DNA of 64,000 nucleotides, taken from NCBI RefSeq assembly GCF_028389875.1, contig NC_084666.1, positions 29,978,308 through 30,042,307 of the forward strand, read 5' to 3'. The translations under genes and the position numbers were made by a program. The notes under the pieces are model-generated. The model searched no databases and had not been told where the DNA came from. It was given only the letters and a program-made list of their open reading frames with translations. Source of the DNA: Rhea pennata. Its lineage: Eukaryota; Chordata; Aves; Rheiformes; Rheidae. This document shows positions 1-58,300 of this stretch, in pieces; position 1 is the stretch's first letter, and each line of letters begins with the position of its first letter.

Positions 1-404
1 CCCTATGAAGAACGGCTGTGAGAGCTGGGCCTCTTCAGCCTGGGGAAGAGAAGACTGAGGGGGGATCTTACCAATGTGGACAAGTACCTGAAGGGAGGGT
101 GTGAAGGGGACGGAGCCAAACTCTTTTCAGTTGTCCCATGTGACAGGACAAGAAGCAATGGGCAGAAATTGAAGCACAGGAAGTTCTGCCTGAGCGTGAG
201 GGGGGATTTCTTCACTGCGAGAGTAACGGAGCACTGGACCAGGTTGCCCAGAGAGGTTGTGGAGTCTCCTTCTCTGGAGATCTTCAAGGCCCACCTGGAT
301 GCAACCCTGTCTACCATGCTCTAGGTGACCCTGCTGAGCAGGGGGGTTGGACTAGATGATCTCCAGAGGTCCCTTCCAACCTTACTGATTCTATGATTCT
401 GTGA
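1..404 (+). mobile_element. CR1 LINE, 3' end (cut by window edge)
   Basis: This is the last part of a CR1 non-LTR retrotransposon in sense orientation. It aligns by eye almost base for base with 14765-15163, including the end of the second open reading frame, which stops at 322-324. A short 3' untranslated tail follows, with the block around 357-385 and a terminal octamer-like repeat of the ATTCTRTG type near 388-404. There is no poly(A) tail, as is normal for CR1. The left part lies outside the window, so length and coding state cannot be judged. Confidence 0.93.
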
Positions 405-10290: not shown

Positions 10291-10990
10291 AGGCCGGCTG
10301 GGCGCCGCGCCGCGCCGCCTCAGGGAGGAGCAGACCACGCCCTAACCGCCGCCACCGCCCGCGCGCCTCCACCGCCCCCGGCCCCGCCCCTGGCACTGCT
10401 CCGCGCTCCTATTGGCTCGTCCCACTCCGCCCCTTCTCGGGCTCGTGCGCGCGTTGCCCCGCTCTTCCGGGAGGGGGTGCGCGCGCGCGTGCGCGCTCAG
10501 CCCGGTGCTCTGTGGACGTTCTAGCCTGCCGTCTCTCTGCTAGCCCGGGGGGGAGGAGGGGGCGGTGCTCGGATCACGTGAACGGAAGCGGCTGCAGCGG
10601 CGGAGCTCGGCGGCCGTTGGGGGGCAGCGAGCGGCGGGAGGTCGCGGCCGGAGCGGCCGCGTCCTGAGGCGGAGGCACCTCCTCCCTCCCCCGCCCCCCC
10701 ACCCTCGCTCCGCCCCGGCCGGGGCTTTTCGGTGAGAGCGGCGCGGCGCCGGCGTCCTCCGCCCCTTCCCCCGCGGAAGGGGACCTGTGCGGGCCTGCTG
10801 AGGTCCCCGGGGCGGGTTGGCCCCGTCCGAGCCGCCGGCTCGGGTGGGGCCGCGCCGGGGGTGGGGGGTGGGATGGCCGCGGTACTGCGCGCCTCTGTCC
10901 GGGGCCGTTTCTCTGAGGCTCGCAGCGGGAAGGCGGCCGGGCTGGTGTCGGGAAGGCGCTTGGAAAGCTGCGGCTGCTCTGAGTGGCTCT
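10290..10990 (+). promoter_or_regulatory. EXOC1: CpG-island promoter of EXOC1
   Basis: The composition jumps abruptly from AT-rich to very GC- and CpG-rich. Visible elements are GC boxes near 10378-10390, an inverted CCAAT box (ATTGG) at 10411-10415 and an ETS-like CTTCCGG at 10464-10470. An alternating GC run at 10480-10497 contains NRF1-like GCGCGTGCGC. A palindromic E-box TCACGTGA lies at 10574-10581 and an ETS-like CGGAAGCG at 10583-10590. No TATA box is evident, which fits a broad housekeeping promoter. The transcription start is inferred to lie near 10500-10600. Confidence 0.85.
10540..10731 (+). other. EXOC1: Probable EXOC1 noncoding exon 1
   Basis: A good donor, TTTTCG then GTGAGAG, at 10731/10732 closes a GC-rich leader just after the promoter motifs. 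It would splice to 16508, which carries the start codon. The 5' limit is an estimate. Small open frames run through both strands but resemble nothing and are best explained by GC-rich composition. Confidence 0.55.
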
Positions 10991-13409
10991 CTCGAATTTT
11001 CCATGTAAACGAGCGATCTTTTATGTGACCACTGGTGGTGAACAGGTTTCCCGGGAATTTTACAATTAGGCTGCGCTTTTACATGAGGTTACTAGCTGAT
11101 GTGGTACAAGAGTGTCATGTTTTCCTGACTGCATGTGTAGAGAGGCCAAACAGTGTTCATTAGTGGCTTTCCCGAGTTGCTATATTGAATCTTTCCTATG
11201 TATTTGCTGGGCAGACTGTGCCTGTGAGATGGTGTCTTTGATAAATTCCATGTAGAAGAGGTTTTGTAACATTCCCTTACCTTACTGAAAAGACTATTCC
11301 TGCAGTCTCACAAGGGATTTATTAGAGTCTGAATTGAGCTCAGATCCCTCAAAGCGTGTTTCTGAGGAAGCAGCTCAGTCTCCAGCTTCTTGTACTTGGT
11401 TTTGTGCTTCTGTGGGATGGCAGGAGTTGTAACTCATGCATGAAGACTGTAGCAATGTACTTGGTCCCGACCTACAGTGAAGATTGGGGGAGTTGTGACT
11501 CAGTGTTCAACTGGTAACAGAAGTTGGGCTATATGTCAGGTGTGTGATCTTGGGATTGATGTATCCTGTTTTAGAGGAAAGGTGTATTCTGTACAGTTGT
11601 GAAATTTTGCATTAGTTCCAAAATGTGAGGATTGGTGACTTGCAACAATCGGTCTAAATGTGATTCAGAGCAGTAGGTGAAATCCTGACTAGAAAAGAAA
11701 GGTGATATTTCCAGAATGCAACAGACTGTTGTTACCTTGCATGTTCATCTTATCCACCTAGTGAAAAATAACTGAAATGACAAATGAAACAATTTGGAAA
11801 GGAAAAGCTGGACCAAGCATTCAGAAGAGGAGGAAAGGCATTAGAAAGCAACTAACAGTGGAGTATTTCAGTGCTATAGGGTTGTCTTATAACTGGGATT
11901 TATCTGAATGTTCTAAACTCTTAGCAGTAGTGATTTCAGCTTGGGATATTGCCCCTTTTCCCCAAAAGCCCTTGAGTTGCTAATTGTTAAAATTACCAAA
12001 TTCCCTGAGTTGAAAAATGTGCTGGACAGCTCAGCTCAGGCTAGTGGGACACTGAACACTATGAGTAATATCAGAACTTCTTCATATAAAGAAAAACACT
12101 CAAACATCTCTTAAGTGTTGCTATTTTTAGATTATTCAGAGCAGTCTCTGTGGAGTGTGAGGACTTGTTGTGAATCAGGTGAGTATTACTAGTGACCAAA
12201 TTTTTTGGAACATGATTTTTGCTTTTATGATCTTTTCTAGCTTAAGTGTGGTTTTGGATTTCTACACTGAGGACTAGACCATGCTTCGCTAAGGAATTGG
12301 ATGATTATACAGGAATCTTTCTCAAAAGTCCCTTTCAGAATTGTTCCTTAGGATTTTGGTTTTGTTGGTGAATAGTTAATTTAAGGTTGGTCTCATCCTT
12401 GATCGTAAACTCATCTTTCATCATACACTAATACACTGGAAGATTTTCTCTCAGCGTGTTGCACATTACTTGAAGGCACTACCTAAAAAGATGTCAAAAC
12501 CCTTAGTGATTGTCTCTTTTTTAAAAAATAAACAAGTTATTAATACGTTACATGTCTAAACTTCATTCTTTTCTTACAGTTACTTCTTTCTACAGTAACT
12601 TTCTCCCATTGCCGGCTGCTGTTATTACATAGAGCGCTGGATTACTAAAAGCCTTCCAGATCCATTTTCCCCTCCTCCCTCTTTCCATTTTTTTCCTTTT
12701 TACCTCCTTGTCTGCCCCACTTCCTACAAGTCCCCAGGAACCAATTTTCTTAATCAGGAGAGCAAGCTTTTAGGTATTGTGAGGAAAGTACTTCTGCTTT
12801 CAAAGGTGAATGCACCTCATTCATACAACCTGTTGGTCTCACTTTGTATCTGCTTTGTGTGTGATTACATTATTGACATTAAACTAAATCTGCCAATTTA
12901 CCAGAAGATTTAAAAGGCAGATGTTGATGTATGAGGATACTACCTTCTCTGTTCACTGTTACAGGCTATGAGAATAGGGAAACAATATCTGCAGAAAAGA
13001 CAGAAATTTTAGCAGAAGTCTTTTCTTTTTAGCAATTCGGTTAGAGTACAATATTCAAGATCAGCACTTCATCCATCCCTAGAAGTTTGTTGCTAGGCAT
13101 ACATGCTTTCTTTCTCTTTTTCTTTATAGATACCTTTTTACTCCTTTTCTAGATGAGAAACTCCATAATTATAAAATCTGTGATTTATGTTTCTGGAATC
13201 TAGTTTACATACACCAGAAAAGGCAGCAAATGAGTCAAATGTAGTGCCTTATCTTTGCAAAACTGTACTGTGACCCTTTTAGATGAAGGTGGCCTTGGAC
13301 TTGTTTTTTTTCTACCAGCTATGAAGATGCATCTCTTCATTCTGTATTTATGTAATAATTGCCGGATTCTTGTTGGAAGATGATAAGGAACATGAACAGC
13401 CTATTAGGT

Positions 13410-15163
13410 TCTTCAAATGCATCAGTAGCAGGAGCAAGACTGGGGAAAATATGGGGCGGGGCCCTGGTAACGAAAGATACAGAGGAGGCAGAATTACTGA
13501 ATGCCTTATTTGCTTCAGTCTTCACTGGTAAAGGGCAACCCTCAAGAATCCCAGAGCCTGGAGACAAGGGAGGAAGTCTGGAGAAAGGAAGACTTTCCTT
13601 TAGTTCAGTAGGATAAGATTAGAGACCTTCTGGGCAAGCTTGACACTCACAAATCCATGGGCCGGATGGGATGCACCCATGGCAGATGTTGTTGCCAGGC
13701 CGCTCTCCATCATCTTTGAAAGGTCCTGGAGAACTGGAGAGGTGCCTGAGGACTGGAAAAAAGCCAGTGTCACTTCAGTTTTTCAGAAAGGGCAAGAAGG
13801 AGGACCCAGGCAACTATAGGCCTGTCAGCCTCACCTCCATCCCTGGAAAGGGGATGGAACAGCTCATTCTGGATATCATCTCCGGACATGTGGAAGAGAA
13901 GAAGGTGATCAGGAGTAGCCAGCATGGATTCACCAAGGGGAAATCCTGCTTAACCAATCTGATAGCCTTCTCTGATGGAATGACTGGCTGGGTAGATGAG
14001 GGGAGAGCAGTGGACATTGTGTACCTTCACTTCAGCAAGGCTTTTGACACTGTCTGCCATAACATCCTCCTAGAGAAGCTCAGGAAGTGTGGGTTAGATG
14101 AGCAGACAGAGAGGTGGATTGAGAACTGGCTGAAGGGCAGAGCTCAGAGGGTCGTCATCAGTGGTGTGGAGTCTAGTTGGAGGCCTGTGGCTAGTGGCAT
14201 CTGCCAGGGCTCAGTACTGGGTCCCATCCTGTTCAACTTCTTCATCAGTGACCTGGATGAGGGGGCAGAGTGCCTCCTCAGCAGGTTTGCTGATGATACC
14301 AAGCTGGGAGGAGTGGCTGATACACCCGAGGGCTGTGCTGCCATTCAGAGAGACCTGGACAGGTGGGAGAGCTGGGTGGAGAGGAACCTCATCAAGTTCA
14401 ACAAGGGCAAGTGCAGGGTCCTGCATCTAAGGAGAAATAACCCTATGCACCAGTACAGGCTGGGGGCTGACCTTCTGGAGAGCAGCCTTGCAGAGAAGGA
14501 CCTGGGAGTGCTGGTGGATGGCAAGTTGACCATGAGCCAGCAATGTGCCCCTGTGGCCAGGAAGGCCAATGGTCTCCTGGGGTGCATTGTGAAGAGTGTT
14601 GCCAGCAGGTCGAGGGAGGTGATCCTGCCCCTCTACTCAGCCCTGGGGAGGCCTCATCTCAAGTACTGTGTCCAGTTCTGGGCTCCCCAGGACAAGAGAG
14701 ACATGGAGCTACTGGAGAGATCTAGTGTAGGGCTATGAAGATGATCAGAGGGCTGGAGCACCTGCCCTATGAGGAACGGCTGCGAGAGCTGGGCCTCTTC
14801 AGCCCGGGGAAGAGAAGACTGAGGGGGGATCTTACCAATGTGGACAAGTACCTGAAGGGAGGGCGTGAAGGGGACGGAGCCAAACTCTTTTCAGTTGTCC
14901 AATGTGACAGGACAAGAGGCAGTGGGCAGAAATTGAAGCACAGGCAGTTCCGCCTGACCGTGAGGAGGGTTTTCTTCCCTGTGAGAGTAACGGAGCACTG
15001 GACCAGGTTGCCCAGAGAGGTTGTGGCATCTCCTTCTCTGGAGATCTTCAAGGCCCACCTGGATGCAACCCTGTCTACCATGCTCTAGGTGACCCTGCTG
15101 AGCAGGGGAGGTTGGACTAGATGATCTCCGGAGGTGCCTTCCAACCTTACTGATTCTGTGATT
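13410..15163 (+). mobile_element. CR1 LINE, 5'-truncated, with reverse transcriptase
   Basis: About 1.75 kb of CR1 in sense orientation inside EXOC1 intron 1. It begins in the part before the reverse transcriptase (GALVTKDTEEAELLNALFAS region, from about 13471). It continues through the RT core, where [26 protein letters not shown] and the catalytic FADD box (near 14284) are readable. It ends with the C-terminal region, stop near 15086, and the usual 3' tail. The long frame at 13671-14738 is broken at its start (about 13600-13790) and by a one-base deletion near 14720, judged against the copy at 54433-55230. The element is therefore dead. No poly(A) tail is present. Confidence 0.95.
13671..15088 (+). 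pseudogene. CR1 ORF2 remnant (reverse transcriptase)
   Basis: Two overlapping frames cover the RT domain and C-terminal part of CR1 ORF2: 13671-14738 and 14735-15088. The first carries the FADD catalytic motif and the fingers/palm motifs. The second covers the conserved C-terminal end ([19 protein letters not shown]). The endonuclease region is absent. The frame is lost at both ends of the first segment, so no functional enzyme is made. It would normally copy its own RNA at the target site. Confidence 0.9.
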
Positions 15164-25600: not shown

Positions 25601-28600
25601 ATTTTAAAGTTGTTTTTTTCCTCCACAACCAGGTTCAACATTCTATTAAAATGCAACACTAAGCTTTCTGCCTTTGGAACAGTGCAATGAAATAGTTGAA
25701 TAACAAACTTGCAGCATCATTTGGTAACAGTTAATATGACTGTATGCTTTGAATAGAGAGAGGAAGCCTGTTTTTTTGTTTTGTTTTGTTGGGGAAGGTA
25801 GAGTTAGACCAGATGCATTTTGTCTTGGAATAGACTTAAATTTTACATTGTTTGGGCTAGGACAACCAGAATAGTTATTCTGGAGAAGTTGGCTTGGGAA
25901 GGGACTCTTCTATGTAGTTTTATGAAGAATGTAAATACCAAGCCAAAAAATTACTCAAAAGAATATGCATCAGATGAAAGAAGCAAGAAATTTGACTATG
26001 TAATAGAGTATTTCATAGCAGTAACGTTAGCTAGCCTTTGAACTGATTTAACAAAGGAAATTGTGGAAGCCATCAGTTAAATAATTTTAAACTATAATGA
26101 TCTTATTCCTACAGTATGCACTTTCATGTTTAAGTGTTTCATGCTAGGGGTTAGAAGAGAGACCCACAAATGGTTGCTATATCTAGCTTCAATAAAGCCT
26201 ATCAAAGACATGTTGAAAATATTATGTTATACTTCAAACAGATATAGTAACTCACTTGTAACAAATGAAGATAACCTGTAAATTAAACTGTTAATTTACT
26301 ACATTGTAACGGTGTGCTGCTTTCTCTTGTGTACCTGGTGTTTGCTTCTAATCAGTTTTTATAAATAGATGCATGCCAAGAAGTATACACAGTGTGGAGT
26401 ATGGTCTCTGCAGTTACATATGCTGTATGTTCAACAGCTGTATGGCCACTGCTGGATTCAGATTCCAAGTTGTATGTTGCAATAATTACACTTTCCAAAG
26501 TTAACTTTCTATTGGATTCGAACTACAGTATTTCAGTTTTGTTTTAGAAGGGAAATTAACAGTAAGTGCGAACCTTCTTGGTAGTCTGTGAGAATAATTG
26601 AATGAAGTCCTCTAGGACTTTGCCTTTACTATGGGCTTATAGTGGTCCACATGTGTCTCATTTATGTATGTCATTAGTAGGAGAACAGGACATAAAATAA
26701 GCATGTGTTGAGGTTGGATATGAAAGTATTCCAGCTTTATGTAGAAGCTGGCTTTTTTTGCATTGCATTAACTAGTTAATAAAGGTTAGTCTTTATAATG
26801 AATAGCAAGACTAGTATACTTTCATTTAAAAGAAAAAATTCTAAAATGCATTGTCAATGCCATTAGGGCTAACTAGTACCCAATACAATAGAGAAGAATG
26901 AGTCAAAGTTGCTTGTTTTTGACTCTCTGATCCAAACTGACAGCCGTTACAACTTTAAAAAGTGCAAGGGCAGCTTTAAAACTATTTTTATGTTCTGCCT
27001 ACCTGTCATATCCAAGCCTAAGTGTCCAGGAATGCCATTTCTGTCAGGGGATATTGACACTTGTTTGACCTTTTTAAATTGCCTGCATATTCTACCACAG
27101 GAACTACGGGCTGACTGCTTAAAGCACTTTTTTATGCTGTTGTGGCACAAGCTAATATTTAAGGTCTTTTACTGTATCTATTACAAGCCAAGTAATAAAT
27201 GCTTAGTGGAAAATACTAAAGCCATTTCAACGTTAAACTCCTCTCCTGTGCTTTAACATTGAGCTAGTAGTTTGTGTTCTGCTACCTCACTGAACTGTGG
27301 TGTCATCTTGCTTGTCTCCTGGATTGCCTAGGAAGCTTGCGGGTTCAAGCAGCTGAAAGCTTAAAAAGCCAGATCTTAAGTTGCTATGGAATACAAAGCA
27401 GTCTCTCCTTGAGGATTACTATTTTTTTCAGATGATCTCCTGGAGAAAAAGAAGGAGGAACATGAAGTTAGTAACTTGCTTTTAAAGGATTGGTTTATGC
27501 TGCGTGTCCTAATCTGCTTGACTCTACGCATGTAGAGTCTAAACTTTTGCTGAACTGGTGTTTTCAGAGGTCAGAAGAAGCAGTTTTTTTTTTTCTTTTT
27601 TTAATTAAGACAAATAATATAGCATTCCTTTATGTTCTTCAGAAACAGCTGAATTCTTGTTACTGGACCTTCAGTCTTGCAGTCTCATGTAAAAAGTGTA
27701 CAACTGACGTTTCTTGAAGGCAAAGTTAGAAGCAGTTGCAGCCTAACAATGAGCAAGCTTACTAAGGTGGATTTGCTGCTACAACTATAATATCTTAGTC
27801 TGTGTTATAATATCTGTGTTATGATAGTGTCTAGAGACCCAAGTTAGAAAGATACATATTACTTTAGAGATCTGAAGTTGAGGTAATTTCTGATTTTACA
27901 CAAATACTTTTGATGCTTTTCTGTTTGTATGAATGAGATGCTGTGAATGTTTAAGTTATTCAGGAAATCCGTATAGTATATCAAGATTTATTTTAATACT
28001 TTCTTTTCTTAAGGGTCATGATCAGAGTTCCACGCTTGCCCAGCACTCTGTTGAATTGACATTACCCAATCATCATCCATTTCACAGAGATTTACTTCGT
28101 TATGCTAAACTGATGGAATGGCTCAAGAACACAGACTATGGAAAATATGAAGGTCTAACAAAGGTATTTGAAATGCTCAGATGCTTCTAGAGAATTTACA
28201 TAATATATTCTTTTTACAAAAGTCAAAAAAAATGCATGAGCGTGTGCATTTTTCTTAAGCATTCCTTAATTTTAAATGTAATTCATTGCCTTCCTTTTTT
28301 GTTCCTCTATGGACTGGGAAGAGAAGACTGAGGGGGGATCTTATCGATGTCTACGAGTACCTGAAGGGAGGGTGTCAAGGGGACGGGGACAAACTCTTTT
28401 CAGTTGTCCTATGTGACGGGACAAGAAGCAATGGGCAAAATTCTGCCTGAATATGAGGGGGGAATTTCTTCGCCGTGAGAGTAACGGAGCACTGGACCAG
28501 GTTGCCCAGAGGGGTTGTGGAGTCTCCTTCTCTGGAGATCTTCAAGGCCTGCCTGGATGCAACCCTGTCTACCATGCTCTAGGTGACGCTGCTAGAGCAG

Positions 28601-30015
28601 GGGGGTTGGACTAGATGATCTCCAGAGGTCCCTTCCAACCTTACTGATTCTATGACTAGGAAACTTCACTTTGATGTTTGATGCATTCCGTGTTATTTTC
28701 CAGATTCCATGTGTGTTTGTTTTGAAGCATCATACCATATTAATCTCAATGTTTATGTAAAATAATTTGCTGTTTTACAGTCTAGTGAGAAGAATAATTT
28801 TTTTCATATTGATAGACTTATTTTTAGTTTTAGTTCAGCAGACCTCTAAAGCTTTTGATATTCTCAAAATAGAAACATTTTGGCCTTGTATTTGTGTAAT
28901 TTTTAACCATGTTGCTTAACACTGGCTTGAAGTGAAAAAGTGATTACAGATATATAGAAATTCTTGAAATAGAAAGTCAGAGGAAAGTTAGTCCTTAACA
29001 GCAAATTGTCTTTAATAAAAGTACTGTCATTCAATCTTAGTTCAAATTGTGGAAATTTCAAATCAGACTCCTAAAATGGCTTTGAAATAGTTGTTCATCT
29101 GCTTTCAGTGCCAGTCAAATGTTCAGTGAACAGCTAACATCTTTTTCTTCAAATAAACTAAAAGTGACAGATTTATAGATTGTGTGAGTTAAATAACAGA
29201 ATTCTGAAGAAAACAGAAACAAATTATTGAGCTGGTCTATCCATGAAGTAAATCTTTTAACTAAATTCTAAAATCGGAATATCTTCAAACTTATTTCATC
29301 TGTTGTACTCTTTATCTTTTGAAATTTGAGCTTATTTTCAGCAGTGTTTCAAATAAAAATGAATTTGTCACTCACTTAACTTTGTAGTAGGCACACAGCC
29401 TTTTCTTTTTTTTTTTCTTTTTTTTTTCTTTTTTTTTTCTTTTTTTTGTTTTTTTGTTTTCTAACAGAACCCCTCTTAGCAGGGGGTGGTTTAATTAGGG
29501 AAGACATATACTCAAGAGGATGTGTAGGAATGATATCTTATTTGTTTTTCTGGCATAGTAATAGAAGAGGCTAGGGAGAATAGTGCTGAATTCTCTCCAT
29601 TCTACTTTGGATTAAGTTCTGCTCCACGACCTGTAACTCCTGTATGTACCACCATGTATATATTTCCTATGGACGGGAAATAGCACTTTTTGATTTGCTT
29701 CTCCACGAACTCTCTAGTAAAATGGATATCACCTACTTAATTATCCTGAGTATATATTTGCGTGTATATGTGTCCAAAGCAGTTTATTTTGTACATTTTA
29801 TTTCCATGCTGCTTTTAAAAAATGAGTAGTATGTATACCCAACTGTTAACTAACTTTTGATTTTTCATTTAAGAATTATATGGATTATTTATCACGACTA
29901 TATGAAAGGGAAATAAAAGATTTCTTTGAAGTTGCCAAGATCAAGATGACAGGCACAACCAAAGAAGGCAAAAAGTTTGGTAAGAGTCTAGGAGGCATAT
30001 TTCTTGCTTTATTTT

Positions 30016-43400: not shown

Positions 43401-44690
43401 CTTCTGCAAAGAGAAAGAGAAGCTAGCAAAGTTTGTGCCTCTTTGGAACGAAATCAAACACTATAAATACAATTTGTTTTAAAAGGCAGAAATCTGTGTA
43501 TTTATATAATTAATTGTCTTATGTCAAGTCACACTCTTATTTCAAATGTCTTTCAGTGTAAAATGAAACCTTCAGTAACAGGTTGCCCTCCTGCTGGGTT
43601 GAAGTACTGTTTGAAAGCATTAATTTTATGAAACACTCTGGATCTATTTTTTTCCCCCTCCCCTAATATTCAGATACTTTTATTTATAATCCCTTTCCTT
43701 GCTAAAAGCAACTAGTACTAACTTCCTAGTACAGTAAAAGGATGCTACTGTCTTCACTAATACTTTGCTGCTTTGAAATTATGTAAACATTAAAAGACCA
43801 CCCATTTTTTTCCTTCCTCATTGTAGAATGTATATGGAAGTTATGAAGTGGGAATACTGAATTCATGTTCAAGGAGATAATGTGACCATGGTTGTATTTC
43901 TTAATTAAACTGCGTTCATCATAGTCTTTTTTCTGTGAAGTGTTAATAGTTAATTTTTTGCGTTTTTGAAGTAATGCCATTTTTCTGTCTCTGGGGACTG
44001 AAGTAGAATTACTTAATTTCTCAACAATTTTTTTCTCCCTTTTAATAAGTATTGACCAAATATTAATATAGTCCTGTTTTCATATAACCCCCTCTTCTCT
44101 CTTGGGCTTCAGCTGCCTGTGATGCAAGGCTTTGTTTAGATATGGCACAGGTGAGTAAGTGCAGCTCAGACATTTGAGGAAATTGCTAAGTTGTGAGATA
44201 AAACTGATGGAGCAAAGAGCCTTTGGGGGTCTTGTGGTGAGCTAAATTTTTAGCTCATTAAATCCTAGCTATCTTTTATTAGTATTTTGTCCTTGAACTT
44301 TGTACATGTGACAAGAAGTGCCCAGTGCAGCCTCAAGGGTGTGTGTGTGCATTGGGGGAGGGGGGAATTAACCCTTTGAATAAATTCCCTTGAAGTGGTA
44401 CAGAGACAGCCAAGTTAGTTGTTGTAGGCACCTCAATGTGGACTTCCTAGAGTTTTGCTTTTTTGGGGGAAGCCTGGTCACAGTTAAAACAACTGGGCAA
44501 TTCAGTACCTCATTATAGGTAGTAAACACAACCAGGACTATGCCTCTTGGGAAAGGATTACAGCTATGGAGAACTGCAGCAACATTTCTTTCCCCTGGAA
44601 GAGCTCAAGTGTGGAGGCAGTGCTGGTGCGGTTAAGTACTGTACTCGGCGCCAGCAGGTCACAACAGGAGCCCCTTTTGAAATAAAACCT
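43401..44690 (+). other. EXOC1: EXOC1 3' untranslated region and short gap to CEP135
   Basis: No coding. Possible poly(A) signals are ATTAAA at 43789 and 43904, and AATAAA at 44379 and 44681. The last lies about 180 bases before the CEP135 CpG island. Which ones are used cannot be told from sequence. A short GT run and a G-rich stretch lie near 44340-44366. Confidence 0.6.
44379..44384 (+). terminator. Candidate EXOC1 poly(A) signal AATAAA
   Basis: Canonical AATAAA 979 bases after the EXOC1 stop, one of several candidates. The nearer ATTAAA at 43904-43909 is followed by a T/GT-rich stretch and may be the main site. Confidence 0.35.
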
Positions 44691-45089
44691 TGCCCCGTGT
44701 CAAAGGTACTGAGATCACAGTGATGAATGCGCTGCGAATGACCAAAAGGAGCCCATCAGTGCTGCGGCTGAAGCTTGTCACATCTTCTGAGGTCGCAGGG
44801 AGCTGCTCTTGGCTCCGGTCCCGGCTTGGCTTTACCGTCTCCTTGGTTTCTTGCTCCAGGGCTGCGGGAAAGCCCGCCGCCCGCCAAGCTTCCGGGGAGG
44901 CGAGTTCGGGAAGAACGGGCGGCTCCGGGCCTGCCGCGGCGGGCGGGGCGCGGCCGGGCGCCGCGCGCGGGCTGCCGGGAGCGCGGAAGGGGCGGCGCGG
45001 CGGTTGGCGCGGCCGTTGGCGGGCGCGGCCGCGTGCCCCGTTGCTGCGGTGACTGGGCGGAAGCGACCGCTGCGCCGCGCGCCATTTTC

Positions 45090-45136
45090 AAACCGCCGGT
45101 CCGGCCGGGGCCTGCGGAGCCGGAGCGCCAGCCCGG
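45090..45136 (+). other. CEP135: Probable CEP135 noncoding exon 1
   Basis: The donor GCCCGG then GTGAGCG at 45136/45137 would close a short untranslated exon just below the promoter motifs. It would join the acceptor at 49190 that precedes the ATG exon. The 5' end is estimated. Other untranslated exons in 45137-49190 cannot be excluded. Confidence 0.5.
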
Positions 45137-45196
45137 GTGAGCGCTGCGAGGGAGCGGCCGGCGGGCGGGCAGGCACGGCTCCTCGCGGCCCTGCCC

Positions 45197-45240
45197 GGGG
45201 CGGGGCGGGGCGGGGCGTCGCGTCGCGTCGCGTCGCGTCG
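45197..45240 (+). repeat. G4-type GC array plus (CGTCG)5
   Basis: Four GGGG runs separated by single C (45197-45215) make a perfect G-quadruplex pattern and overlapping Sp1-type sites. Five exact CGTCG units follow directly at 45216-45240. The array sits about 60 bases inside CEP135 intron 1. Confidence 0.92.
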
Positions 45241-45480
45241 AGCAGGGGGAGGGAGGTGGTTGCTGTGGGTCCGCGTCGCCTCGCGCTCCTGTAGTGCCAG
45301 CAGCAGCTCCCGTGTGCTGGGCCGCGTCCTTCCCCTGGCGCCGGGGAGAGCCGTTCAGCACGAGCTCCCGGGCCCTCGGCTCCCCCTCGCTCCCCAGCCT
45401 CCCCTTCCCCGCCCGCCGCAGCGTCTCGCCGAGGCCGCCCTGAAGCGTCGCAGCTACTGCGTAGTGGCTTTGCTCTGGGA

Positions 45481-48400
45481 GAACATGCTTCTAACGGGGT
45501 GCCTGGAGAGACTGACGGGGGTGTGGGCGGGGAAAGGGAAAATAAACCTATTTCAAAGGGGAGAGGGCTTCTGTAGGCATAGATTGTGTTTGCTGAAAGG
45601 TCTTCCATACACGTTTCAGTTTGGGGAGACTGTGCTATAATGTAGACTTACTGTTTTTAGTGACTCTTCAAATAAGAAATCCATTTTCCTAGGACAAAAG
45701 TTGTCTTTCTAGTAGCAAATTGGTGACGCTTCAGAACAAGCATAGTGCCTGAATACTTTTGTCAGAAGTCAACTCCCAGCAAATCAAGTTGCAAACAAAT
45801 GGTGCCAAAACAACAAATTCAGACTTACTGCAGGTACCTTGAAAATGTTATTACAGCTGCCCTTCACAATACAGCTGTGGATCCTGTACCTGACTGTAAT
45901 ATAGTAAGCTTAGTCCACTGGGTGCCTTTTTTATATGAATGGAAAAAAAACCCCTACATCTTCATAGCAAAATGAGCAACACGGCAATTCCAGGACAGAA
46001 ACAGATGCTTTGTGAACATCTTTCACAAAACAGATGCCTCCAACCCTGCTGCTCAGTTCTCTCAAATGAAAAAGTTTGTGACCTAGAAGTTTACAGGTTC
46101 AAAATACATGTATTGTTATAAAAAGCTAGTCCTTCAAAAGACTGCTCACAAGCATCCAGGTATCTCACAAAATGAGCGTATGACTGTTGCCCTCTTTAGC
46201 AGTCTTCATGAGCAAAGGACAAACGAAAAAGGCTATTTGCTATAAATCTTTCTCCTGTGAATAACAAAGATCTGCAGATTTAGACATCTTGATAAATCCT
46301 TGTCTGGAAACTCCTGCTTGAAGGTACTATTTAGTCCCTTTTCATTTGTTTATCTAATTTTAAATAGATGTTTCTTATCTAAAATGGAAATTGTATTTTC
46401 TTCCTAGGAGGGCTAATGTACATGAAATATGTAGATATTGGATGATGTGAGCTATTTATGTAATTAATGTAGCCTTTTTTTTTTTTCTGTGGGAAATATA
46501 TTGAAACGAAGTTGTTTAAGTGTATCCTAGCAAAATTGCAGACAAATCTAATAGGGTCAGCATGCCTTATTGACATGACTCAGAACAATTGCGACAGAAA
46601 GACTCACAAGACTATTAAATATCATTAAAGACAATGATGTTCCAAGTTGACCTGACTGGGTAAGAATAGTTCAGTTGATGGAGAACACTTGAATTTACAG
46701 AAAGCTTTTGAGAAGGTTCTTTACCAAAACCTTTAGGAAAATGCATTTCTTTTGGAATTGAAGAAAAAAAAGTGTTATTTAACACTGATAATTGATCTGA
46801 AGAAAATTTACACAGTAAGGGGAAAAGTTTTCTCATTATGTGGAATTGTTAAGAGGTATCCAAAAAGCTGTAGAGGAATATTACAGCACTAAGTGATAAA
46901 ATGGGGATTAAGGGCCAGTGTTGATAAAGGCAAATCACGAACTCTAGGGGGCTGTTGTTACTCAAAAAAAGAGATGTTAGAATCATTAAATAGAGAATGC
47001 TACAGCAGGTATCTTTATAGCTGCTATATAAATCTTTGGCGCAGCCATATTTCAAAAACAAGGTGCTCAGAAGTGCTCTCAGTTTCAGAAAAGGCACAGA
47101 AAGGGGTGATAAGGTTAATCAGCTATATGCAGTGTTTTTGCAGAAGCTTCCAGAAAGTTTTGGAAAATAAATTACTGAGGAGGGATATGTTAAATATACC
47201 ATTGTGAATGACTGAAACCATGACTAAGAGTTATTTTGTATGTCTTCATATCCAAATGGATATAATTTATATACAAATATCTGATAGCAAGTATTCATTG
47301 CTATCAGGTATTTGGATATAAACGTGCTAAAGACTCTAAAAACGGATGTGGTAGAAAGGTCTGTCAGGTGCTATTAAAATAATGATTTAGGTGTAGGACA
47401 GAGTCCCTATAACCCTAAGGTTATAGTAAAAGAAGATAATTTAAGAGGATGATTTGCCTCGTGTTTATTTATGTTTTATGCTTTCACTGTTGTTACTGTC
47501 AGAGATGCAGGGTATTTGGCCAGACTGATTTTACTTTCTACTGAATCGGTACAGCAGTTCTTCTGTTTGCTTTGTATCTCGAGAAAGCTGTGTTTTCCTG
47601 ATGGAGAAGTTACTAGATGCTTTTTGATGTGATAATAACAATTCATCTTTTTAACTAATATAGTTCTTAAGGAGAGAATGTGCTCAAGAGTCATTAGCTT
47701 ACTTTTCTAGTAAGTAATATAAGATGGATTCCTGAGATTAGTTCTTAACCATAGTAACACGATCACTCCCTTTTTTGAATTCAACATAAAGAATCCTCAA
47801 TGTGAATGCAGAAATACCGAAGTCATCGCTTACAGCTTTTCTCTTTGGCTGCCAAAGGAGAATGAAGAGCTTTTAGAATAATGACTTAATACTGTCCATT
47901 ACTGGTTTGTGGAACGAAATGTTCCTTCTCCTTCAACCAATCTAGTACAATGTATAAGTTGTTGTTCTCCATGCTGTTGCCCTTTATATCTCAAAATCCT
48001 GAACCTCTTCAAATTAGTGTTTTGGTAATCCCTGGAACAGATCCTGTGCTCACAAGGGTAGTGATTTTCTCTAATCTGTTGAGCAGTGCCTGGCAACTGT
48101 AGTCCTACTATTAGACCTATTTGTACTGTTTTGATACAATTAGATGAAATCTTCCTTTCCAGTCTGACATGAAACTTTTTTTCTAACTTTATTATTAATA
48201 AATAATTTTATTTTAAATACTTGCATAATTTTTATCGGTTTTATCAATCCCCTATTTTAAAATCTAGGGGATTGCAAAACAGCATAGTTTAGATAACAAT
48301 TTATATTCTTTCACCTATCTATGAGATGCAAACAATGCTTCCTCCAATTCATAGTTTGGCTACTGAGGTCTTCTGCATAAAGAGCAGGTTAATATTGCAA

Positions 48401-49353: not shown

Positions 49354-52300
49354 GTATTGTGATTCTCTATTCAAAAGGAGATTCATTAAAAAACATAACT
49401 CATATGCCTTTTTTGATTATGACATACGAGTGAAAATGCTTAGTCTGAAGATTAGCTTTGAAATAACATTACTTGAAAATAATGCTTTGTTCCGGTGTGT
49501 CTGAGGGGGTCAAATGGATTTGCTTAAGCAATCAGAACATTTTAGGATTTAATTTGGTAGAATTGGTTGATAGTTCTAAGGTTTATGGTCTAAAAAAATC
49601 TTAGTTTTTAGCCTCATAAGAGAACTAATAGTTCTAAGAGTTAGATAACTATGTAATAGACTTATATGAGAGTTTTCTTTTATATACTGATAATTTTCTA
49701 ACATAACAGTTACTATTGATATGTGATTGAAAGACACATTTACAACTGGTCATATCTGCTGATGTCTGAACTGTGACTGAAGAGAAAATGTTCACAGCTC
49801 AGTTTTTTTATGATTCCATTTGGAGAAGTATATGTAAAAATTTTTTATCTCTGCAGTTTGTTCTAGCAGAAAAAAACCAAGCTTTCGCGTGACCTTAATA
49901 TTTCTGCCATTTCATGGCTTTGATGCCATTAGGAACATGGTAATTTGCATAGTAATCCAATTATATTTGTCTGAACATGCGCTTAGGTTAATATTCTTGT
50001 TCTAGTGCTAGCTAACATCTAATACAGATAAAAGAACTCTATATAGGCAGATGTGGAATAATCTACCTTCAACATTAAGTCTCATTCTGATAGTTTACAA
50101 GTTTAATCACTGAATCACTGACTTTGATATTATTTTCACAAAAATGTTTATGGCTACTTATCACTAATCTCTTATGTAGCTTTTGATCTCCATATAGATA
50201 GTAGTACCCTTTTGATCTTTTTGATTGTTAACTTTGTGGTAACTTTCTTCTGTGATAAGCAGTACTACAACTTTTGTGTGTAGAAGAAAAAAAAACTTGT
50301 CAATTTTGAATTTCTCTATGTAGAAAAGAGTTTATTCAATTATCAGATGCAAGGTCTTTATATGCTTTTTCCATTTTTTGCATATTCATCATGTGCTTTC
50401 TTGTTTTCTTTTTTTTTTGAGTGAATAATTCCGATCTTTTGGTTTTTCTTAATGAATGTTCTTTGCCTTTCTTTGAACCCATTTGTTGTACAGTAAAGAT
50501 GGTCATAGTCAACAATTTTTTTTCCAAAATAAAAAATTGCATCTGCAATGTAAAGTTTGGTAACATTTCTAACATGTCTCATGTTCCTTGATTCCAGTGA
50601 CCTTGTCCATACAACAGAGAGCCTGCGCAGTGCAAAGTTATCTGCTGGAAAGATAGAAAAAGAATGCAGCAATTATGATGCTATTTTGGAACCTTATAAA
50701 ATAGAGAATGCTAAACTTACCAGGGAAAACAACGAACTACATTTAGAAATACTAAAATTGAAAGAGCAATCTGATCGTCGTATTAAAGGTAATATAAAAG
50801 TTGTGATGCTTTTTAGATCCTTTAGTGTCAAACTAAAATTGTGGACAAATCCCTGATCTACAAATTCACATGTGTGTATTTATGTATGTGAGTGGCACCT
50901 TTAATGAACTGAGGTTCACGTACAGATATTTCTTTTCTAGTTAAAATGCTTTTGAGCTCCTGCACATCATTGCTTTAATTAAGCATGAAACCATTTGAAC
51001 CTTTTCACGTACATGTTCATATCTTGAATTCTTACTTTTTAGTTAAAATGCAGAAATCCTGTTGTAAAATGTGCCTTTTCTACAAAGGGTTTTTATTTGT
51101 ATAAATATATATAAACTCATACTTAATGTGTTTTTGTGTGTATGTGTGTATATATATGAAAATCCTTTTTAGTTCTTTTTTACAGTGTTTCACTCAACTG
51201 ATATAAAATTCATTTTTTAAAAGAATGCACTGAAGTTTTTAAAGCCAGTCGTGCAAGCAGCATAAGTTATGACAGTTAGTATGTCAATAAAGCTCTCTTT
51301 TTTAAGCTTTTTTTTTTTTTTTATGAAACAGAGCTCTAATGATTATGCTGTTCGTCTGTCATTTTCGCTAGCTTTTGACCTATTGACCAGTCTCATGTGT
51401 ATTTGATAGGGGCATTGAAACCTCTAAACATACCAATGTCCTACAGGATTTTTGGAAAAACTAAATAACAAAGATCCTCCCACCACCACCATTCCACACT
51501 CTCAGAAGGGTGGAGAAGAGAGGTACTACTTAAGATGAAGAGGGAGGGAAAACTCCAACAGCAGCAATCTGGCCGATCAACACATTTAGGTAGACACTGA
51601 CAGCAGTACGAGCTCTTTTTTATGGGCCTGCTGGCTAAGCAAAGTAAAATGCGTGGGAAGAGTTCTGAGGTGGGTAGTGATGGGAACATGAAGAGAAACC
51701 CAAAGTGATTATGCTGTAAGGTAAAAGAATATACATCCATAGCTAAATAAGCAAGTACATAAAATGAGTGTGAAACAGAAGTTCAGACTTCTTACTCTTA
51801 TATTCTCAACAATTTGGCAGAACCAGAAATGCTGGAGAAGTTTAGAGTTGTTTTTGAAAGAATGTAAAACCTACATGCAATGTTTAAACATAGGATTCTT
51901 CTGTGTTCTTTTCCATAAGATGAATTTTTCAAATGTCCTATGTTGATGCTATAAAGAAGAATAATAATGAATGGTAAGGATAATACTGTTTCCTCCTCCC
52001 TCTCTCACCCCCCTTCCCCCCCACCCCCCCCCCCAAAAAAAAAAAAAAAAAAAAAAAGATTTGAAAGCCACCTTAAGGAAGATTGAACATGAAACAGCTG
52101 ACTTGAAATTTCTGAATAACCAATATATGCATAAAATTAAAATACTGGAAAAAGAAAACAAAGCCAAGACTGAAAAGATTCAACAGCTTCAGGAGAAGAA
52201 TCTACAAGCAGTGGTGCAAACACCAGGTAAGTGTAAAACAATCACAGATGTTTTTACTTTTCTATAGGCTTTTGTTGTTGTTGTTGTTCTTCTAGGCATT

Positions 52301-55300
52301 ATCTTCTTTCTGTATCGCAAGAGGGCTTATTACAATAAAATAACACTGTCCAGCACAATAACATTACCTTTTGAAGCTTTTGACCCTGGGGTCAGGTTGT
52401 GGTGTAGGCAGATTTGAATATGAACCTGGAGTCAGTGGAAGAGTATTAAGTTAAAACCTGGCTGGAAGGTTCAATCAACAGCTAATTTTCTAATGCTGCT
52501 ACTGATTTAGTCAGAGGCAGGTCTTGTTTGATGCATGGGTCTTCTTGACAATGAACTGTTGATATGTGAGTGTCTAATTCAGATTTTTGTGATCAAGATA
52601 GTAGCAGGTCACAAATATATAATCCAACCCTCTGGAAGCTAACAATATTTAAAGTGTTTTTGATAAATTAATATGTACCAGATGTAACCTATAGGTTAGT
52701 GTCTTTCTCCTTTGCTTGCTTCCCCCCCCCAATTAAGACTTGGTTTCAAAATTTCACAAACTACTACTCATGATTTCCCTTTTCTCTCTGAGTCATTTGA
52801 TTACCTATGTGGTTTTGGCATCTGAAAGAAATTAGTATGTAATTAGAGGAAAAAATATCTTTTTTTTCTTAAACATTTAACTTTTTTTGCATTTTTTTTG
52901 TTATGCTGTGTTATACTTTTTTTCTGTGTCTTTTTCCATACTAACTCCTCTATCTCCTTGGATTTTGCCATCATCAAATGTAGTGTGGTATTATTTATTT
53001 GTGTAAGAGAAGTAATTGTTCCCTCTGGAAATAGTACTATTTTATTTTACATTCAAGCAGATGATCTACTCTGCTCTGATACGTCTGTGTTGTTAATTCA
53101 CTGAAATGACAAGAGGCTAGAAGGAAGATAAATATTAATAAACAATGCAGAGGTTATCCTATCTCATAGGATAATTCTTAATTGTAAAAACAATTTTTTG
53201 TAATGTTTCAACTTAGCTTTTTTAGTTTCTTTAACTGCCAGTAGAAATGGTTACTGTACCAGTCAATCACCCACTTTTCTAGCCCCTCTCCTGCTAATAA
53301 CTTGTCTTTTGCCTCCTTACTTCTCCTATTCTATATCCTGTTTTTGTCTAGGTTGCTGAATAGTGTTTTTTTTTCCGTCTAAAGAGCAAAAATCTTTTTT
53401 TCTATAGCATTTTGTAGACTCCGATGCTTATAGCTGCTCTTTAAGCAGGAGCTGGAGGAGAATATTTAGCTTTCTAAATATTCTAGGAAGCTATGCTGGA
53501 ATTCACATATTTCCTATTTCAAAGGTGGATTGTGACAAATTAATACTAACCTGCAAGAATAGTGTTGTCAGCAATGTAGAACTTTCACCAGCATACATCA
53601 CTAAGATAAAATGATGGAATGTGCCAGTTCAGAAGTAGCTGAATAGATATGAATTTTCTTTATGTATAAAAGAAAGAGTCCCTTATTTTCTTTTCAAATA
53701 ATAAATATTTGCATTTGGGCTTTTTTAGGTGGCAGAAAAAGAAGCATTCCATTCAGGCGTCAACGCATGCAGATAGACCAGCCTGTCCCTCCATCAGGTG
53801 TTAGTGCCTATCCAGTTCCTCAGCCAGAGGACCCTTATATTGCAGACCTTCTTCAGGTGGCTGATAATCGGTAATTTAAAGAATTTTTACATTATAAATA
53901 TCTGCTGCTGTGACTTTTTTTTTCCTTTTCTCTTCTGCCTTTCAGAGATGAGATGGCATTTTGTGATGTTTCAAGTTCTTAAGTAGGATTCTGCTTTGTG
54001 ATAGACAGTGCTGCCTGTGACAAAGTTGCAATGAGTATTTAATAAGCTGCTTACTTCCTTAAAGGATTTCTCTTAAAATTTCTTTATTGATTTTACTGTT
54101 ATATCAGTTTTTAAATCAATTATTCCAGAAAGAACCTAGAGGTAATTTTTTTTCCGTAAGTGTATTTATTTTGGAAGTCTGTGATATTCTTGATTTTGTA
54201 ATACAGGCTTGGGGCCCTGTATTGTGAGAAACTCAAGTCAGTTTAAAAAAAATCTTTTATTTGCGTATTAAATATATCTCAAACAATATTTTCTGCATTA
54301 ATACTTTGTGTTAACAAAACTATTTTTGTTATTGAAACATTTCTTTTGGGAGCAAAGAGAAAATATTAATGTTAAATTGTTATGTGTGCATAACTTCTCC
54401 ATGAATTGACCTATACAGTATATTACTACATTTGGGTGGAGAGGAAGCTAATTAAGATCAACAAAGGCAAGTGCAGGGTCCTGCACCTAGTGAGGAATAA
54501 CCACATTCACCAATACAGGCTGGGGGCTGACCTGCTGGAGAGCAGCTTTGCAGAGAAGGACCTTGGAGTGCTGGTGGACAACCAGTTAACCATGAGCCAG
54601 TAATGTGCTCTTGTGGCCAAGAAGGTCAATGATATGCTTGGGTACATTAGGAAGAGTGTTGCCAGCAGGTTGAGGGAGGTGATCCTGCCCCTCTACTCAG
54701 CCCTGGGGAGGCCTCATCTCGAGTACTGTGTCCAGTTCTGGGCTCCCCAGGACAAGAGAGACATGGAGCTACTGGAGAGAGTCCAGCATAGGGCTACAAG
54801 GATGATCAGAGGGCTGGAGCATCTGCCCTATGAGGAATGGCTGCGAGAGCTGGGCCTCTTCAGCCTGGGGAAGAGAAGACTGAGGGAGGATCTTATCAAT
54901 GTGTACAAATACCTGAAGGGAGGGTGTGAAGGGGATGGGGACAAACTCTTTTCAGCTGTCCCATATGATAGGACAAGAGGCAATGGGCACAAACTGAAAC
55001 GTAGGAAATTCTACCTGAATATGAGGAAAAACTTCTTTATTGTGAGAGTGACAGAGCAGTGGACCAGGTTGCCCAGAGAGGTTGTGGCATCTCTTTCTCT
55101 GGAGAGGTTCAAAACCCGCCTGGATGCAACCCTGTCTACCATGCTCTAGGTGACCCTGCTTGAGCAGGCGGTTTGGACTAGATGATCTCCAGAGGTCCCG
55201 TCTAACATCAACCATTCTGTGATTCTGTGACATTTCAGAATTCATGAACTTCAGTCAGAAGTAACAGAACTGCAGGAAAAATTGGAGATATCTGAACGTG

Positions 55301-58300
55301 GAATGAAAAATTATAGCAAACAGGTATGCTTACACGATTTTTTATTGTTTGACTGTATTAGTCATTGCAATAGCCTTGTTTATAATTTTTATATTAACTT
55401 CAGTGGAAAGCATTTAAGGTCTTGTGAAATACATTTATTTTAAATGGAGTTATTTCTTTCCTCTGCACCACTTTGATTTTATACTTTCTGAGTATAACCA
55501 GAAATACCAGCAATACTAAAATTCTTTTAAAGGCAGTTATACTCCTTCTGCTCTTGTTATTATATTTAGCATATTAAAATTTACATTGAAAGATCTGTGT
55601 TTGAGGATTGTCAGCAGAGTTTCTATATGTTTAGGGTTTTTTAGTGCACAGTATCAATTGCTTGAAAATCATAATTTGATCTATAAATATACTGGAAGGA
55701 TATATGCATATTTTTCACAATTTTGACCATAGTTTTTGAAATTTGAATTTTTTGAATTTATCTATAGACAACAGTTTTTACAATATTTAATTAGAATGGA
55801 CCAATAAGGTACATATTATCTTTAACTGAAGACATTGCACCAGATGTTCTGACGTTATTATAGCTCTCAATAGTTGAGGAAGGGCGAGTACCATCCTATT
55901 TTTTTTTTTTTTGTTCTCAGCTTGGTTTTCCTATTTTCTGTGTTTTTCACACTGATGTAGTTGCTGAACAGAATTATCTGGTTTAAAAGCTGGTTCCACA
56001 AATTTAAATGTTAGCCTCAGGTGGTTAATTTACAAAATCTATTAACTTCACTTTAATTTGAAGTTATTGGTTTCTCTTCAAGCAAATAATCTGGTAAGAT
56101 TTTTTTTTCAATATTTTTTCACAAACTTAGGTTTTACCTTCGATTCACTTATTTTTTATTTCAAAGAAATCTCTTTGTTCAGCAAAATCAAGAATTCAAA
56201 AATAATTGGATATTAAAAAGAAATGTAGCATTATTGGGTGCATCTTTTCTTACTGAATGTTACATAAGTGTTTGTTTGAACAAAGATTCTGTAAAATAGT
56301 ATAGAAGATGATAAAGAAGTAATGTTTTTTTTCCTCAAAGGTTGAGCTAAGAGATAAAGAAATAGAGCGTCTAGTGCTAGCATTGGATGGTGGTCGCTCT
56401 CATGATGTTATATCTCTGGAATCAAGGAGTAAAAGTAATGAGAAGCTTATTGCCCATTTGAATTTACAGGTAATGGATTTATTATTAGTAGTTAGTCAAA
56501 GCTAAAAATAATGGCAATCTTAAAGAAGCCTTTCCAGCTGTTCTTTTTACAAAATATCGCTGTTGGATATAAACTCAATCTAACTTGCTTGCTTTGCTTT
56601 TTCAGTAACAGTGTTTCTTACTTAAAGAAACTTCAGTTCTTAGTTTAAAAATCTTAGAATGTTTTTGATTAAAAAATGAATTCACATTTTTATATAGTAA
56701 TGTTCATCTAAGAGTATTCAGAAAATTTCTGTATGATAAACTATTTTGACTGTGTTTGAAAAGATTTATTTTCTTTTTTAAACTTTGGAGTGTTTTTGTA
56801 CATTTTGTTTATGTTACAGAAACTAACATTGTGTAAATATATGTATGATGAGGAGTATTCCTGCAGGTAACTGCATCAGATAGTGGGGCATCCTCCTGGT
56901 TGAATTCAGATAGTCCTCACCTTTCTTCTGACATAGACTTGCAAGGAAAGAATAACTTTAAGATACAAATGGTTATGTTCATATTGGCATGCATTCAGTA
57001 TTGATCTCAGAATAAGGATTTCTAAATGAAGTGTGGGGTACACACTAGACTCTAGAGCAAGTAAAGCCCATCTGTGCATGCACACCATCAATTCTGTTTT
57101 CCAGCTGAGTGTTGTTTTGTATACTAGTTATACATGATGTACAGTGGCTTGCAGTCAGGTTGCAGAGCTCGTTAGCTTGGGTTCAGTGCTACAAGAATAC
57201 AGATGAGCTATGACTTGGAAGCAGTGCAGCTATGTTCAGTGATCTTGAATTCTTAAGTCACGCAGAGCACAAATTGACTGCACAAAGAGTGTGCCCAGGG
57301 GTATATACTATGCTTCCAGCGTAGGATAAAGCCAGTTTTGGTCCAGCAAGTCGTCGTCTTCAGGCTTGGTGCCAATATACCACTTTTACTCTTTGAAGAT
57401 GTAGACTCCAAAGTATTTGTGAATGTAAGAGGGCTCAGGCCTGCTTTCCTGTCCATAGTAGTTTCTTCTGGAGTTCTGAGGAAAATGATATTGAGATGGA
57501 AGTGACAATACCTCTGTTACCCTGAGGTATATGTATTTTCAAGATATTCCAGGCTCCCCTTTTCCTGGATAATTTAATTTATTGTATGTGTATTTTCCCT
57601 CCTACTATATGTCCCTATCTTCTCTTCTATTTACTCTGAGGAAAATACACTGTCAAAACCAGAATGTCTGTAGAGCAGGATTTCTGGGGATGTTGTGTTT
57701 AAGGGGCCAAGATGTGGGTAATTTAGGGTAATTTACATCTAGGGTAATTTAGCAAAGCTTTGAATACACGGGGTCTGCTGGACTGATACCTGACACAGAT
57801 TTCTGTACAGATCTCTGCTTTTCAGTAATTTACATTTTTTTAGAATAAACTTCATGTTTTGGTAGGTTATATAAAGAACATGGTGCAGTAGTGAATTTCT
57901 TCACTGTGCACCTTTGTAAGATCTTTTGTCCATGTTGATAGTTAGTATGTTCTAAAAATAGAAAATCTTGCCATTTTTTAACAATGTCTTTTTTTATTAT
58001 GAGATACTGTATTTTGAAGATTTGGATGAACTTTTACTATCTTGTTTAACAATACATATTAATATTTAATGAAAAATACCTTTTAGGTTGAGTATCTTCA
58101 GCAAACAAACAAAGAACTTGAAAATCGCATTCAAGATCTATTGGACACTAAACAAAATGTGACTAGTGAAGTGGTGCAATTAAGCAATAAAAATGAAGAA
58201 CTGTGTCAAGAACTAAATGAAATAGACCACTTGGCACAGGAGTTGGAAAGACACAAGGAAATTGTGCTTGAAACTGCAGATAAGGAAATAGGAGAAGCAA

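What the first reader, a model, noticed from the sequence alone, without database searches (positions are those of the whole stretch)
54433..55238. CR1 insertion supplies the branch point and pyrimidine region of CEP135 exon 6
The sense CR1 ends at 55230 and exon 6 starts at 55239, so only CATTTCAG is host sequence between them. The functional branch point and tract must then lie in the transposon. A perfect CTAAC lies at 55202-55206, with its branch A 34 bases before the exon and no AG in between. The sister copies read TTCCAACC there, so a point change in this copy may have made the branch site. The flank before the insertion (GACCTATACAG...TTACTACATT) joined to CATTTCAG looks like the ancestral 3' splice site, now about 800 bases away.
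Basis: partly seen in the sequence, partly recalled or inferred. Interest (0 to 1): 0.75.

Follow-up and report, generated by a model that had tools for sequence, protein, structure and literature searches.

The report
Transposon supplies a splicing branch site
In this bird genome an old CR1 transposon sits at the very end of an intron of the centriole gene CEP135, eight bases before a conserved coding exon, so the RNA signals used to splice that exon most likely now come from the transposon's tail.

Summary
A 5'-truncated sense CR1 fills 54433-55230; the CEP135 exon starts at 55239 (85 nt, so skipping it breaks the frame). Only CATTTCAG lies between, and ACATTT at both edges looks like a target-site duplication. 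CTAAC lies at 55202-55206, its A 34 nt from the exon with no AG between. 83 AGs lie between 54405 and 55194, and none of 39 in-frame upstream AGs gives an open frame into the exon. If the exon is used, as its conserved frame implies, its branch point should be in the CR1 tail. The pyrimidine region is weak and partly host: the acceptor ranks 12th of 15 scored in this gene, its branch motif first (recalled matrices). The C-to-T that makes CTAAC is real but ordinary: 2 of 39 close sisters and at least 28 other near-identical tails carry it. Tails of this CR1 family often combine an AG-free stretch with a branch-like motif (26 of 39 sisters; about 5% of random segments), which may explain why the insertion was tolerated. 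No RNA and no second bird genome could be examined: branch use, empty site and age are inferred.

The parts
53728..53870 (+). CEP135 exon 5 (last tested exon before the intron; its start lies within 1-2 bases of 53729), donor TCG|GTAATT at 53870/53871
53871..55238 (+). CEP135 intron 5, 1368 bases
54405..54433 (+). inferred former acceptor region: branch-like ATTGAC (28 bases from the exon in the joined empty site) and ...TATTACTACATTT; now about 800 bases upstream
   Evidence: empty-site scoring; inference
54428..54433 (+). ACATTT, 5' copy of the probable target-site duplication
54433..55230 (+). 5'-truncated sense CR1 retrotransposon copy
55195..55238 (+). AG-free stretch that ends in the acceptor AG
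55202..55206 (+). CTAAC, best branch site candidate (branch A 55205)
   Evidence: use inferred
55215..55230 (+). two terminal CR1 octamers TTCTGTGA (the first from 55215, the second from 55223)
   Evidence: octamer as defined in PMC2612034
55230..55235 (+). ACATTT, 3' copy of the probable target-site duplication
55237..55238 (+). acceptor AG
55239..55323 (+). CEP135 exon 6, 85 bases, donor CAG|GTATGC

Best explanation
A CR1 RNA was reverse-transcribed into the last bases of CEP135 intron 5 and duplicated ACATTT. The acceptor AG was kept, but the old branch site and most of the old tract were pushed about 800 bases upstream. The CR1 3' tail took over: U2 snRNP most likely recognises CTAAC at 55202-55206 (branch A 55205), U2AF reads the weak stretch across tail and duplication, and the first AG downstream, 55237-55238, is used. 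Shown: sequence, positions, frame, AG pattern, membership of the CR1 family. Inferred: actual branch use, the empty ancestral state, the order of insertion and C-to-T change.
For: Sense CR1 up to 8 bases before the exon. Exon conserved, in frame with exons 5 and 7, 85 bases so that skipping shifts the frame. 0 of 39 in-frame upstream AGs in intron 5 gives an open frame into exon 6, and the only in-frame AG inside the exon would leave 7 bases. 83 AGs between 54405 and 55194 would stop a scan from the old site (rule in PMC1431707 section 4). AG-free stretch of 44 bases with CTAAC at 34; its branch score 5.90 is the highest best-score among 15 acceptors scored.
Against: No RNA, lariat or second genome seen. 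Score matrices are recalled approximations. The acceptor is weak: 1.74, 12th of 15, against 3.41 for the inferred empty site. Seven other AGs in intron 5 score higher, best 53945 at 6.92. The recalled human sequence over exon 6 is not independently confirmed (one search covers residues 63-180).
Confidence: 0.72

Rival explanations
1. The branch point is in the CR1 tail but mainly at another adenine (for example in TGTGAT, 17 bases from the exon, or in ATCAAC), and CTAAC is incidental.
For: Branch choice is often degenerate (established knowledge, recalled). TGTGAT at 17 bases is the second best match (3.26).
Against: CTAAC scores 5.90 against 3.26 for the next candidate and is at a usual distance.
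Confidence: 0.12
2. The insertion damaged the acceptor: exon 6 is partly skipped or replaced by the strong acceptor at 53945, giving truncated products.
For: Weak acceptor, 12th of 15; decoy at 53945 scores 6.92 and leads after 11 further codons to a stop.
Against: The gene's frame is intact over the exons mapped, and the element looks old (K80 0.082-0.098), so a large loss of function is unlikely. The decoy would need a 75-base intron.
Confidence: 0.09
3. The old branch site upstream of the CR1 is still used as a distant branch point.
For: Branch points 100-400 bases from the acceptor are known (PMC1431707 section 4).
Against: Known cases have an AG-free zone after the branch point; here 83 AGs lie between, and the distance is about 830 bases.
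Confidence: 0.04
4. Assembly or annotation error at the junction.
For: CR1 copies are abundant, and no reads were available.
Against: Among the 40 scored matches (of 11027 candidates) the best other copy is 89% identical; the exact 31-base tail occurs once in the genome; the edges carry a short duplication.
Confidence: 0.03

Closest known systems
Transposon-derived splice sites and exonisation (Alu, MIR in primates; e.g. PMC7275561 and PMC6822395, seen as abstracts in a search listing)
   Same: A transposed element supplies signals that the spliceosome uses.
   Different: There a new exon arises inside the element; here an old conserved coding exon keeps its AG and only the signals before it are replaced.
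SINE upstream of HCRTR2 exon 4 in narcoleptic Dobermans (PMC4028550, one legend passage read)
   Same: A retrotransposon inserted just before an acceptor.
   Different: There the exon is skipped and the gene fails; here the gene's frame stayed intact for what looks like tens of millions of years.
Transposed elements adding or removing competing branch points at OGDH (PMC7969005, abstract and passages read)
   Same: Elements change the set of available branch points.
   Different: There the setting is distant branch points and mutually exclusive exons; here an ordinary-distance branch point of a single conserved exon.
Depletion zones for transposons near exons in human and mouse (PMC3088655, abstract and sections 6 and 8 read)
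   Same: Defines where this insertion would normally be selected against: close to an acceptor and in sense orientation.
   Different: A mammalian survey; CR1 in birds was not examined there as far as I read.

Membership tests
CR1 non-LTR retrotransposon (avian LINE) | Sequence homology to many dispersed copies | tested here: met
   40 matches scored of 11027 candidates, one of them the copy itself; the other 39 are 88-89% identical
CR1 non-LTR retrotransposon (avian LINE) | Terminal TTCTGTGA octamers at the 3' end | tested here: met
   Two octamers at 55215-55230; definition from PMC2612034
CR1 non-LTR retrotransposon (avian LINE) | 5' truncation | tested here: met
   About 34 of 39 sisters (my count of printed rows) continue upstream with CR1-like sequence where this copy does not
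CR1 non-LTR retrotransposon (avian LINE) | Target-site duplication, if any, at the edges | tested here: inconclusive
   ACATTT at both edges, but short and overlapping bases that also fit CR1
U2-type 3' splice site | Acceptor AG in frame with a conserved exon | tested here: met
U2-type 3' splice site | Branch motif at usual distance within the AG exclusion zone | tested here: met
   CTAAC at 34, AG-free 44 bases
U2-type 3' splice site | Polypyrimidine tract | tested here: inconclusive
   10 of 17 bases are pyrimidines, longest run 4; acceptor score 12th of 15
U2-type 3' splice site | Lariat formed at the predicted adenine | not testable with these tools
   no RNA data
Transposon-derived (exapted) splice signal | Required signal lies in transposon sequence | tested here: met
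   Only CATTTCAG lies between element and exon; by position, not by assay
Transposon-derived (exapted) splice signal | Element absent, and host signal used, in outgroups | not testable with these tools
   No other bird genome held; exon 5 peptide found no relative in genome contigs or viral contigs
Transposon-derived (exapted) splice signal | Signal kept by selection | not tested
   Needs orthologous copies

The most novel reading that the evidence does not exclude
CR1 tails act as a portable branch-site cassette. Their 3' end is usually AG-free for 36 bases and often holds a branch motif at the right spacing, so a sense CR1 that lands just before an acceptor AG can replace the branch site and leave the exon working. 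Birds and other CR1-rich reptiles would then hold a class of exons whose branch points come from CR1, and sense CR1s would be less depleted beside acceptors than sense LINEs are in mammals. CEP135 exon 6 would be one such exon.
Probability: 0.3. Interest if true: 0.65.

Novelty: new variant of a known kind. Interest (0 to 1): 0.45.

Why it matters
Insertions right at acceptors are under-represented in mammals, sense LINEs above all (PMC3088655 sections 6 and 8). A retained one in front of a conserved, frame-critical exon is a natural experiment on what a branch site needs, and presence or absence across birds can date it. The tail comparison suggests a testable rule about which retrotransposons can land on an acceptor without breaking it.

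Tried and rejected
Relatives of the locus: exon 5 peptide against genome contigs and viral contigs gave 370 and 22 pattern matches and no confirmed relative. tRNA and Rfam (gathering threshold) scans of the window found nothing.

Idea that CTAAC came ready-made from a source subfamily: two other tails share both the C-to-T and the C-to-A. One (L065) is only the 12th nearest sequence in the tree; the other (L064, 212 matched bases) was too short and was left out. The pairing of this copy with L008 has weak support, 0.534. Not decided.

Idea that the CR1 reaches further upstream, because GACCTATACAG resembles GACCTGGACAG in the sisters at nearly that spacing: judged likely chance, because the 9-13 bases between do not match and the printed bases further upstream do not either. 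No search was run for it.

Rows dropped: 5 of 20 modelled introns (acceptors 50662, 52058, 65194, 68862, 81196) were left out of the acceptor comparison as poorly modelled; 52058 later looked genuine. 8 of 62 sequences were left out of the tree for length under 330 bases. The tail control used single-letter shuffles, not dinucleotide shuffles. The genome-wide count of TTCNAACC tails and the scan for other CR1 tails before TTTCAG did not complete.

Literature: ten searches. No paper in their listings, judged by title and abstract, reports a CR1-supplied branch point or a CR1 at CEP135; held no paper at all. The short human isoform CEP135mini, which I recall, had 0 occurrences in the 12 papers listed.

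Full report
What is there. The window is G000:C4:29978308-30042307 of a genome of 1.269 Gb in 180 contigs. It carries the first part of CEP135, whose coding exons can be followed through the window and the next 30 kb in the order of the human protein. Exon 5 ends ...LLQVADN(R) at 53870, and the next exon reads (R)[28 protein letters not shown] from 55239 to 55323. It has 85 bases, so skipping it breaks the frame.

The insertion. Bases 54433-55230 are a sense CR1. The genome search scored 40 of 11027 candidates: the copy itself and 39 others at 88-89% identity over nearly the whole length. About 34 of the 39 sisters (my count of the printed rows) continue upstream of 54433 with CR1-like sequence, while this copy changes to other sequence, so it is 5'-truncated there. 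The tail ends in two octamers TTCTGTGA, the form described for the waterfowl coscoroba (PMC2612034, abstract and passages read). ACATTT stands at both edges, a probable target-site duplication whose edge bases also fit CR1. The empty site would read ...ATTGACCTATACAGTATATTACTACATTTCAG|AATTC, a plausible former acceptor with a branch-like ATTGAC at -28. One AG lies 18 bases from the exon, close enough to that branch point to be bypassed under the rule cited below.

Why the branch point should be in the element. The AG-free stretch before the exon is 44 bases long; 83 AGs lie between 54405 and 55194. In known distant-branch-point exons the first AG downstream is used, apart from AGs within about 12-15 bases of the branch point (PMC1431707, section 4 read). 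Of 39 in-frame upstream AGs in the intron none gives an open frame into exon 6, and the one in-frame AG inside the exon would leave 7 bases. So 55237-55238 is the only acceptor AG found that keeps the protein, and its branch point should fall in CR1 sequence. CTAAC at 55202-55206 is the best candidate: score 5.90, the highest best-score among 15 acceptors scored of 20 modelled, at 34 bases. 0.08% of window adenines score as high. The matrices are recalled approximations.

The acceptor as a whole is poor: 1.74, 12th of 15, against 3.41 for the inferred empty site. The pyrimidine stretch is broken by purines, and its last six bases are host or target duplication. Seven other AGs in intron 5 score higher. 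The best is 53945 (6.92), 75 bases after the exon 5 donor; joined to exon 5 it gives, after the shared arginine, 11 codons and a stop. The exon may therefore be less than fully included.

The point change. Column 55203 is T here, C in 36, T in 2 and a gap in 1 of 39 sisters. Two neighbours differ from every sister: 55200 G (T in 39 of 39) and 55207 A (C in 38, T in 1). The exact 31-base tail is unique in the genome and 854 places lie within 3 mismatches. Of the 57 places with at most 2 mismatches, 29 including this one read CTAAC (my count). Because the pattern itself holds CTAAC, that share is inflated; the point is only that at least 28 other copies carry it. It may have come before or after insertion.

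Age. The copy differs by K80 0.082 from the majority of the nine sisters with its tail type and by 0.098 from all 39. Sisters measured the same way range from 0.029 to 0.096 for all 39, and 8 of the 9 same-type sisters are closer to their majority than this copy is. Its terminal branch in a tree of 54 sequences is 0.074. With recalled bird rates of about 1.2-2.2 substitutions per site per billion years this is very roughly 33-80 million years; the sisters were picked by similarity, so the figure is rough.

A general point. Tails of the 39 sisters, each followed by CATTTCAG in a script, have an AG-free zone of at least 36 bases in 35 cases, and that plus a branch score of at least 4.5 in 26. 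Random window segments have both in 259 of 5000 (plus strand) and 247 of 5000 (minus strand); single-letter shuffles of the tails in 209 of 1950; internal segments of this CR1 in 2 of 680; the other 14 CEP135 acceptors in 7 of 14. The sisters are one family, so this is one property counted many times, not 26 independent cases. It is mainly carried by the other tail type (ACTGAT, CTTAC): of the nine sisters with this copy's tail type only two reach 4.5. So for this type the C-to-T change would matter, which counts against a simple ready-made cassette here.

Comparison with what is known. Transposons are under-represented near exons in human and mouse, more at acceptors, and LINEs and LTR elements more in sense orientation (PMC3088655, sections 6 and 8 read). 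A dog SINE upstream of HCRTR2 exon 4 causes exon skipping (one legend in PMC4028550). Transposed elements can introduce or remove competing branch points at OGDH (PMC7969005, abstract and passages). None of the listings of my ten searches showed a report of a CR1-supplied branch point; the library holds open-licence papers only.

Verdict. It is a testable case of a known kind of event with an unusual twist: takeover of an old exon's branch site rather than birth of a new exon.

Noticed in passing
window 52035-52067: The acceptor of CEP135 exon 4 is preceded by a run of 23 A (52035-52057) between a C-rich tract and the AG at 52057-52058; a second in-frame AG ends 9 bases later at 52067. An unusual acceptor, or a homopolymer problem in the assembly.
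   Followed up: partly
window 53910-53945: A strong acceptor-like site with a long pyrimidine tract ends at 53945, 75 bases after the exon 5 donor; use of it would lead to a stop after 11 further codons.
   Followed up: partly
window 54405-54415: GACCTATACAG just upstream of the insertion resembles GACCTGGACAG upstream of the same point in most sister CR1s (9 of 11 bases); probably chance.
   Followed up: partly
window 10001-12000 and 44001-46000: Two G+C-rich stretches (0.541 and 0.549, most other 2-kb bins 0.30-0.40); the second lies 3-5 kb before the first mapped CEP135 coding exon and may be its promoter region.
   Followed up: no
window 1-404, 14373-15163, 28316-28655: Three further CR1 copies on the plus strand, 82-87% identical to this one over the matched part.
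   Followed up: no
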